Below are positions 23,430 to 24,008 of a stretch of 64,000 bases of DNA, piece by piece. Position numbers and translations under genes: made by a program. This DNA is from Enterobacter sp. Ag1 (GTDB lineage Bacteria > Pseudomonadota > Gammaproteobacteria > Enterobacterales > Enterobacteriaceae): positions 124,001 through 188,000 of the forward strand of contig AKXM01000004.1 in assembly GCA_000277545.1 (NCBI GenBank), read 5' to 3'. Numbering within the stretch: position 1 is the stretch's first letter; every line of letters starts with the position of its first letter. The notes beneath the pieces are model-generated. The model ran no database searches, was not told where the DNA came from, and saw nothing but the letters and a program-made list of their open reading frames with translations.

Positions 23430-23438
23430 ATGAGCTAG
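23430..23438 (+). other. flhC: flhC start followed by an in-frame amber codon (ATG-AGC-TAG)
   Basis: The expected flhC start, 3 bases after the flhD stop, reads Met-Ser-stop-Lys-Ser-Ile-Val-Gln-Glu-Ala. E. coli FlhC begins Met-Ser-Glu-Lys-Ser-Ile-Val-Gln-Glu-Ala, so a single G-to-T change (GAG to TAG) explains the difference. The frame from 23430 to 24008 would otherwise give exactly the usual 192 residues. It could be a real nonsense mutation or a base-call error. Confidence 0.85.
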
Positions 23439-23477
23439 AAAAGTATTGTCCAGGAAGCTCGCGACATTCAGCTCGCT

Positions 23478-24008
23478 ATGGAGCTGATAACACTCGGTGC
23501 CCGATTGCAAATGCTGGAAAGCGAAACGCAGTTGAGCCGTGGTCGCCTGATCAAACTCTACAAAGAACTCCGTGGAAGTCCTCCTCCAAAAGGGATGCTG
23601 CCTTTCTCTACTGATTGGTTTATGACCTGGGAGCAAAATATTCATGCTTCCATGTTCTGTAATGCCTGGCAGTTTTTACTTCGTAGTGGGCTCTGCACCG
23701 GCGTTGATGCGGTGATTAAGGCCTATCGGCTCTACCTTGAACAATGTCCTTCCCAGTCAGACGGCCCGCTATTGGCGCTGACTCGCGCCTGGACGCTGGT
23801 GCGTTTTGTTGAGAGCGGCATGCTCCAGCTGAGCCAGTGTAACTGCTGTGGGGGCAATTTTATTACCCACGCACATCAGCCGGTCGGCAGCTTTGCCTGC
23901 AGTCTGTGCCAGCCGCCATCGAGGGCGGTAAAAAGACGTAAACTTTCCCAGAATGCTGCCGATATTATTCCACAACTGCTGGATGACCAGGTGGAACAGG
24001 CTGTGTAA
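23478..24008 (+). CDS. flhC: Flagellar master regulator subunit FlhC (5' end interrupted by a stop at codon 3)
   Basis: From the first ATG after the amber codon this encodes 176 residues, corresponding to FlhC residues 17-192. The remainder is intact and highly conserved: ELITLGARLQMLESET, WFMTWEQNIHASMFCNAWQF, and the zinc-binding cysteines in CNCCGGNF and SLCQ. The normal ATG is 23430, but codon 3 there is TAG. No GTG or TTG occurs between, and ATG 23478 has no good ribosome site, so a truncated FlhC would depend on reinitiation. If the stop is real, class II and III flagellar genes should be poorly expressed. The 3' end carries the motA sigma-28 promoter. Confidence 0.9.
   Translation: MELITLGARLQMLESETQLSRGRLIKLYKELRGSPPPKGMLPFSTDWFMTWEQNIHASMFCNAWQFLLRSGLCTGVDAVIKAYRLYLEQCPSQSDGPLLALTRAWTLVRFVESGMLQLSQCNCCGGNFITHAHQPVGSFACSLCQPPSRAVKRRKLSQNAADIIPQLLDDQVEQAV
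23939..23965 (+). promoter_or_regulatory. Sigma-28 promoter of motAB-cheAW, inside flhC
   Basis: TAAACTTT - 11 bases - GCCGATAT matches the FliA consensus with exact spacing. E. coli motA is also read from a FliA promoter within flhC. Transcription would begin near 23972. Confidence 0.85.

What the first reader, a model, noticed from the sequence alone, without database searches (positions are those of the whole stretch)
23430..23480. In-frame amber codon at position 3 of flhC
The normal flhC ATG, 3 bases after the flhD stop, is followed by AGC then TAG, after which the frame continues as an otherwise perfect FlhC of the usual total length (192 codons). One G-to-T change from GAG explains it. 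The next in-frame Met is codon 17 and has no evident ribosome site; no GTG or TTG lies between. The result would be a truncated FlhC made by reinitiation, amber readthrough, or loss of function. Loss would silence flagella, although mot, che, flh and the three sigma-28 promoters look intact. A recent mutation, phase-like control, or a sequencing error are all open.
Basis: partly seen in the sequence, partly recalled or inferred. Interest (0 to 1): 0.75.

Follow-up and report, generated by a model that had tools for sequence, protein, structure and literature searches.

The report
Stop codon breaking flagella master gene
One bacterial genome carries a single-letter change that puts a stop signal at the third codon of flhC, the gene that switches on flagella, which most likely makes this strain unable to swim; such mutations are a well-known, ordinary way for gut bacteria to lose motility.

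Summary
The window lies in a Cedecea-like genome, and flhC reads ATG AGC TAG at 23430-23438, then continues as a normal 192-codon FlhC frame. The stop is private to this genome. All 7 held congeners have a glutamate codon there, and 0 of 107 other aligned FlhC loci has a stop before codon 176. Against the congener closest in flhDC, flhD-flhC differ at 12 sites: 11 synonymous, the twelfth the amber. So selection kept FlhC intact until very recently. One FlhC gene was found. None of the 66 detected tRNAs has a CUA anticodon. The next in-frame ATG (codon 17) has no ribosome site, and the lost residues are strongly conserved. The flagellar and chemotaxis genes that I examined are open.

Best reading: a recent, strain-level nonsense mutation that removes FlhC and silences the flagellar regulon. 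E. coli biofilm isolates give a direct precedent (PMC5100188: flhC codon 103 to TAG, non-motile). Without reads, an assembly error cannot be excluded (about 13%), nor can weak residual FlhC (about 10%). Phase-like control has no support. The finding is ordinary. One practical point: automatic annotation would probably name a shortened 176-residue "FlhC" and hide the lesion.

The parts
23067..23426 (+). flhD, 119 aa, intact
   Evidence: NF002783 FlhD, 151.7 bits, cut-off 90; ORF; its 3 differences from G007 are synonymous
23430..24008 (+). flhC reading frame, 192 codons plus stop, interrupted at codon 3
23436..23438 (+). in-frame TAG (amber) at flhC codon 3; a glutamate codon in all 7 held congeners
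23478..24008 (+). longest remaining ORF of flhC, starting at ATG codon 17 (176 aa); possible weak reinitiation product
   Evidence: still scores as FlhC, NF009365 264 bits, cut-off 216; no Shine-Dalgarno pairing upstream
23939..23965 (+). sigma-28-type promoter match inside the 3' end of flhC, ahead of motA
   Evidence: 2 mismatches to a recalled consensus; function not tested
24134..25950 (+). motA and motB, intact, downstream of flhC
   Evidence: TIGR03818 and NF006548 above cut-off

Best explanation
A recent strain-level nonsense mutation in flhC. Ribosomes that finish flhD and start flhC stop after two codons, so little or no FlhC is made. The FlhD4C2 activator does not form, class II flagellar operons and fliA stay off, and with them the class III genes (flagellin, motAB, che, receptors). 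The cell is probably non-flagellated and non-motile although its flagellar genes are still intact. Shown: the stop, its privacy to this genome, a single detected FlhC copy, open downstream genes where examined, no detected amber-reading tRNA. Inferred: absence of working FlhC and loss of motility.
For: The stop is private: 7 of 7 held congeners have a glutamate codon, and 0 of 107 other aligned loci has any stop before codon 176. Of 12 differences from G007 across flhDC, 11 are synonymous and one is the amber, so the gene was under purifying selection until very recently. In codons 2-16 the 7 congeners differ only synonymously (codons 12, 15, 16), so the lost stretch is constrained. It is also recognisably conserved in a distant FlhC of known structure, 8j56. 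One FlhC was found in the genome. 0 of 66 detected tRNAs has a CUA anticodon (two cut by contig ends read GTT). Upstream of the internal ATG the best anti-Shine-Dalgarno pairing is +0.4 kcal/mol, against -4.4 for the normal flhC ATG. Of 10 Fli frames scanned, 8 are named above a cut-off. Of 8 Flg frames, 7 are above a cut-off and FlgH is matched but below its cut-offs; FlhB and FlhA are above one. Precedent: non-motile E. coli MC1000 biofilm isolates with small flhC mutations, one a TAG at codon 103 (PMC5100188, passages).
Against: No reads, expression or motility data are held, so an assembly error or residual FlhC cannot be excluded. No second strain of this species is held. No decay is seen in the flagellar genes examined; this fits a recent event but equally fits a base-call error. 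The N-terminal deletion has not been shown here to destroy FlhC function: no structure model was obtained.
Confidence: 0.75

Rival explanations
1. Base-call or assembly error: the real genome has a sense codon at position 3 and FlhC is normal.
For: A single substitution in a 64-contig draft, no linked decay in the flagellar genes examined, and 0 of 107 other aligned loci with such a stop. The sequencing platform and depth are unknown.
Against: In about 150 kb of this genome compared with G007, the flhC stop was the only interior stop that I could assign to a named conserved gene (not every flagged ORF was resolved), so the assembly does not look error-rich. flhD plus flhC are a very small target for a random error.
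Confidence: 0.13
2. Residual function: FlhC is made at a low level by reinitiation at ATG 23478 (about 40 bases after the stop) or by natural UAG misreading, giving a weakly motile strain.
For: An in-frame ATG follows closely, and the 176-aa product still scores as FlhC. Reinitiation shortly after early nonsense codons is known from lacI (recalled; one search gave only a search listing).
Against: No Shine-Dalgarno pairing (+0.4 kcal/mol). The removed residues 4-16 are nearly invariant apart from position 12. No amber-reading tRNA among those detected.
Confidence: 0.1
3. A deliberate or reversible switch (amber-based phase variation, or programmed readthrough).
For: Motility is bistable in some enterobacteria (Salmonella, as discussed in PMC5100188, passages).
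Against: The TAG is in 0 of 7 congeners and 0 of 107 other aligned loci. No tandem repeat was found at 23000-24010. The only repeats at 23330-23560 are a 17-base pair of copies (82% alike) away from codon 3 and an 8-base inverted pair whose second arm ends at the A of the ATG; both are of the short two-copy sort that the tool calls often chance. No suppressor tRNA was detected.
Confidence: 0.02

Closest known systems
Spontaneous flhD/flhC mutants of Escherichia coli MC1000 biofilm (PMC5100188, passages read)
   Same: Inactivating lesions in the flhD operon; one isolate (JS98) has an amber codon in flhC (codon 103) and is non-motile
   Different: Here the amber is at codon 3, in a different genus, in a deposited genome, and the phenotype is unknown
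Natural loss of FlhDC in Shigella flexneri and other non-motile Enterobacteriaceae (PMC1779565, passages read)
   Same: The pathway is shut down at its master activator
   Different: There structural flagellar genes have begun to decay; here none of those examined has, which points to a recent event
lacI nonsense-codon restarts (recalled)
   Same: An early stop followed by an in-frame start codon
   Different: No evidence here that the restart works

Membership tests
FlhC (PF05280 / NF009365) | Scores above the curated cut-off over the full length | tested here: met
   285.3 bits, cut-off 27, positions 1-172, with 1 TAG inside; the 176-aa piece 264 bits, cut-off 216
Spontaneous flhDC loss-of-function variant | Lesion expected to inactivate flhD or flhC, absent from close relatives | tested here: met
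   TAG at codon 3; 7 of 7 held congeners sense
Spontaneous flhDC loss-of-function variant | Downstream flagellar genes intact | tested here: met
   for the genes examined. The fliN- and fliQ-position frames are open but gave no family at the E-value set; FlgH is matched below its cut-offs; flgA, flgB, flgC, flgD, flgM, flgN, cheA and cheY were not put to the family scan
Spontaneous flhDC loss-of-function variant | No second functional FlhC | tested here: met
   One PF05280 match in the genome
Spontaneous flhDC loss-of-function variant | Non-motile phenotype, complemented by flhDC | not testable with these tools
   No phenotype data
Amber suppression | tRNA with a CUA anticodon | tested here: not met
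   0 of 66 detected tRNAs. One search scored 150 of 173 candidates, and no tRNA-Glu, Ala-TGC, Ile-GAT, Pro-CGG or Sec was seen, so the list is incomplete
Programmed stop-codon readthrough | Stop codon conserved in relatives | tested here: not met
   0 of 107 other aligned loci
Alternative start at codon 17 | Residues 1-16 dispensable and unconserved, or absent in relatives | tested here: not met
   Residues 4-16 apart from 12 nearly invariant; congeners vary only synonymously there; Met17 is Ile in 8j56

The most novel reading that the evidence does not exclude
The strain keeps the amber because it gives low, noisy FlhC by rare misreading or restart, so a small motile minority arises from a genetically uniform non-motile majority: a nonsense codon used as a bistability device on the flagellar master switch.
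Probability: 0.02. Interest if true: 0.6.

Novelty: new member of a known kind. Interest (0 to 1): 0.15.

Why it matters
It is one more case of motility being lost at its master regulator. It also shows how such a lesion can hide: the 176-aa remainder still passes the curated FlhC cut-off, so an automatic annotation would probably list a normal-looking FlhC with a late start. Anyone predicting motility from gene presence would probably be wrong for this genome.

Tried and rejected
An E. coli megablast with the 5-kb flhDC region gave no match. A search of complete E. coli genomes with the flhC of L102 found a match in 5326 of 5426 genomes, but its rows do not reveal point stops, so it gives no rate of nonsense alleles. 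A 7-base anticodon-loop pattern gave 235 places and was uninformative. Structure prediction of FlhC was not obtained: the machine was busy, so the importance of residues 1-16 rests on sequence conservation only. On the FlhC N-terminus, a search (listing) and passages of PMC5493677 gave nothing. Searches naming Cedecea with flhC (3 papers) and with flagella, motility and genome (29 papers, 20 listed) showed no title or abstract opening about an flhC lesion; of these I read passages of PMC5522597 only. Further searches were seen as listings, apart from passages of PMC5100188 and PMC1779565. Considered and rejected: codon 17 as the native start, suppressor tRNA, second FlhC copy.

Against a clean story: the screen (149 G007 ORFs of 80 aa or more, 118 with a hit, 110 full length, 31 without a hit) flagged 8 ORFs, not one. 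Besides flhC they are: a cheR that is shorter in G007 itself, one cut by the end of my stretch, one overlapping the flgM/flgN region on the other strand (looked at by eye), and four that I set aside as low identity, antisense-looking or start-choice without testing each. The reverse comparison (147 own ORFs, 117 with a hit, 110 full) flagged 7, likewise not resolved one by one. In one search the 150 best matches are listed; broken copies score lower and may sit among the unlisted ones. In one search, 111 loci were given; one had no hit, one (L024) was partial and dropped, and two of the 109 aligned rows are this genome itself. Several of the other 107 are probably the same species twice (102 distinct sequences), and a few are second FlhC copies of one genome. 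G007 is called the closest congener by flhDC identity (99%); over the window the long aligned blocks are 94-96% identical. One search failed because of a wrong file name and was rerun as after a look at the folder.

Full report
What is there. In the window, flhD ends with TAA at 23424-23426. Three bases later flhC begins with ATG AGC TAG (23430-23438), and the frame is then open to 24008. The longest ORF left in that frame starts at ATG 23478, codon 17, and is 176 aa long. PF05280 finds one FlhC in the 4.75-Mb, 64-contig assembly, and it carries this TAG.

Which organism. The nearest named flhC loci are Cedecea neteri NBRC 105707 and two strains deposited as Enterobacter sp. Cy-643 and Enterobacteriaceae bacterium RIT693. 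By contig coordinates G005 is the first of these and G001 the second (inferred). The window is therefore from a Cedecea species close to C. neteri; no tool names the exact species. C. [quoted passage not shown]

The stop is private and recent. All 7 held congeners have a glutamate codon at position 3. Of 111 loci given, 110 had a hit and 109 aligned from codon 4; two of these are this genome. None of the other 107 (102 distinct sequences) has a stop before codon 176; codon 3 is glutamate in 97, aspartate in 6, valine in 2 and arginine in 2. Against G007, the congener closest in flhDC, flhD-flhC differ at 12 sites, 11 synonymous plus the amber. Sites unique to this genome against all 7 congeners number 4, three synonymous plus the amber. 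In a sample of 294 genomes of the family, 174 hold FlhC; the 150 best matches are listed and only this one has a stop, but weaker matches are not shown.

The missing end matters. Residues 4-16, apart from position 12, are nearly invariant in an alignment of 10 FlhC (the wider listing is). Within codons 2-16 the congeners vary only synonymously, at codons 12, 15 and 16. A distant FlhC with a solved structure, 8j56, aligns through the same stretch and has Ile where Met17 is. This argues against a native start at codon 17. The best anti-Shine-Dalgarno pairing is -4.4 kcal/mol before the normal flhC ATG, -2.8 before flhD and +0.4 before ATG 23478.

No rescue or switch was found. The genome shows 66 tRNA matches, from 150 of 173 candidates scored. 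ARAGORN names 61 at the fetched places and 3 in the window, and two cut by contig ends read GTT. None has a CUA anticodon. The list lacks some expected tRNAs, so it is not complete. There is no tandem repeat at 23000-24010 and no repeat covering codon 3 among the two short pairs found at 23330-23560.

The regulon stands, as far as examined. FlhD, MotA, MotB, CheW, CheR, CheB and CheZ, FliF, FliG, FliI, FliM, FliP, FliR, FliA and flagellin, and FlgE, FlgF, FlgG, FlgI, FlgJ, FlgK, FlgL, FlhB and FlhA are open and above a curated cut-off. FlgH is open and matches only FlgH families and their kin, but below their cut-offs (299.2 bits against 380; 276.8 against 280). In one search two of ten proteins (the fliN and fliQ positions) gave no family at the strict E-value that I set; their frames are open. 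The remaining flg genes, cheA and cheY were not put to this scan. Screening about 150 kb against G007, the flhC stop is the only interior stop that I could assign to a named conserved gene; seven other flagged ORFs were set aside, not all of them tested.

Mechanism. FlhDC is the activator of seven flagellar operons in E. coli and of fliA (PMC1779565, passages). With termination after two codons, FlhC should be absent or trace. The class II genes, fliA and hence the sigma-28 class would then stay off. This step is inferred. In E. coli MC1000 biofilms, 62 non-motile isolates included five with small mutations in flhC, one of them a TAG at codon 103 (PMC5100188, passages). That is the same kind of event.

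Error or mutation. The sense codons of flhD and flhC offer 122 single-base changes to a stop out of roughly 14 million possible substitutions in the genome, so any one random base-call error has about a 1 in 100,000 chance of landing there. Spontaneous loss of motility is frequent in biofilm culture (5.4% of isolates with reduced or no motility, though only 0.1% in planktonic culture; PMC5100188). I therefore favour a real mutation, but this is an estimate. Reads would settle it.

Verdict. An ordinary, probably real, recent loss-of-function allele of a known kind. Interest 0.15.

Noticed in passing
G007 against window 38685-39551 (cheR): cheR is 288 aa and intact here, but in congener G007 the ORF is 172 aa with the rest matched separately: a possible frameshift or sequencing error in that genome.
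   Followed up: no
G003:C1:4496712-4497123: The flagellin match of congener G003 is split in two pieces, one of which carries a TAA stop.
   Followed up: no
G000:C55:143210-143812: A second FliP-family gene apart from the flagellar fliP at C30:72391; it may belong to a non-flagellar secretion system.
   Followed up: no
window 28712-29977 (-): An open frame that looks like a dicarboxylate/proton symporter (by eye, no family search) lies between cheW and the receptor genes, in a che region that is contiguous in E. coli (recalled).
   Followed up: no
window 13053-13079: A sigma-28-type promoter match with 2 mismatches, about 120 bases before an unexamined 383-aa ORF.
   Followed up: no
L030 (G002:C51:64643-64992): Congener G002 has a second, divergent FlhC-like frame (55% identical) besides the normal one, with further flagellin-family matches on the same contig, suggesting a second flagellar system; this genome shows one FlhC only.
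   Followed up: no
L102 (CP089930.1): The record is titled Escherichia coli strain E69, yet its flhC is at most 90-95% identical to that of all 5326 complete E. coli genomes matched: perhaps another Escherichia species, or near records are left out of that collection.
   Followed up: no
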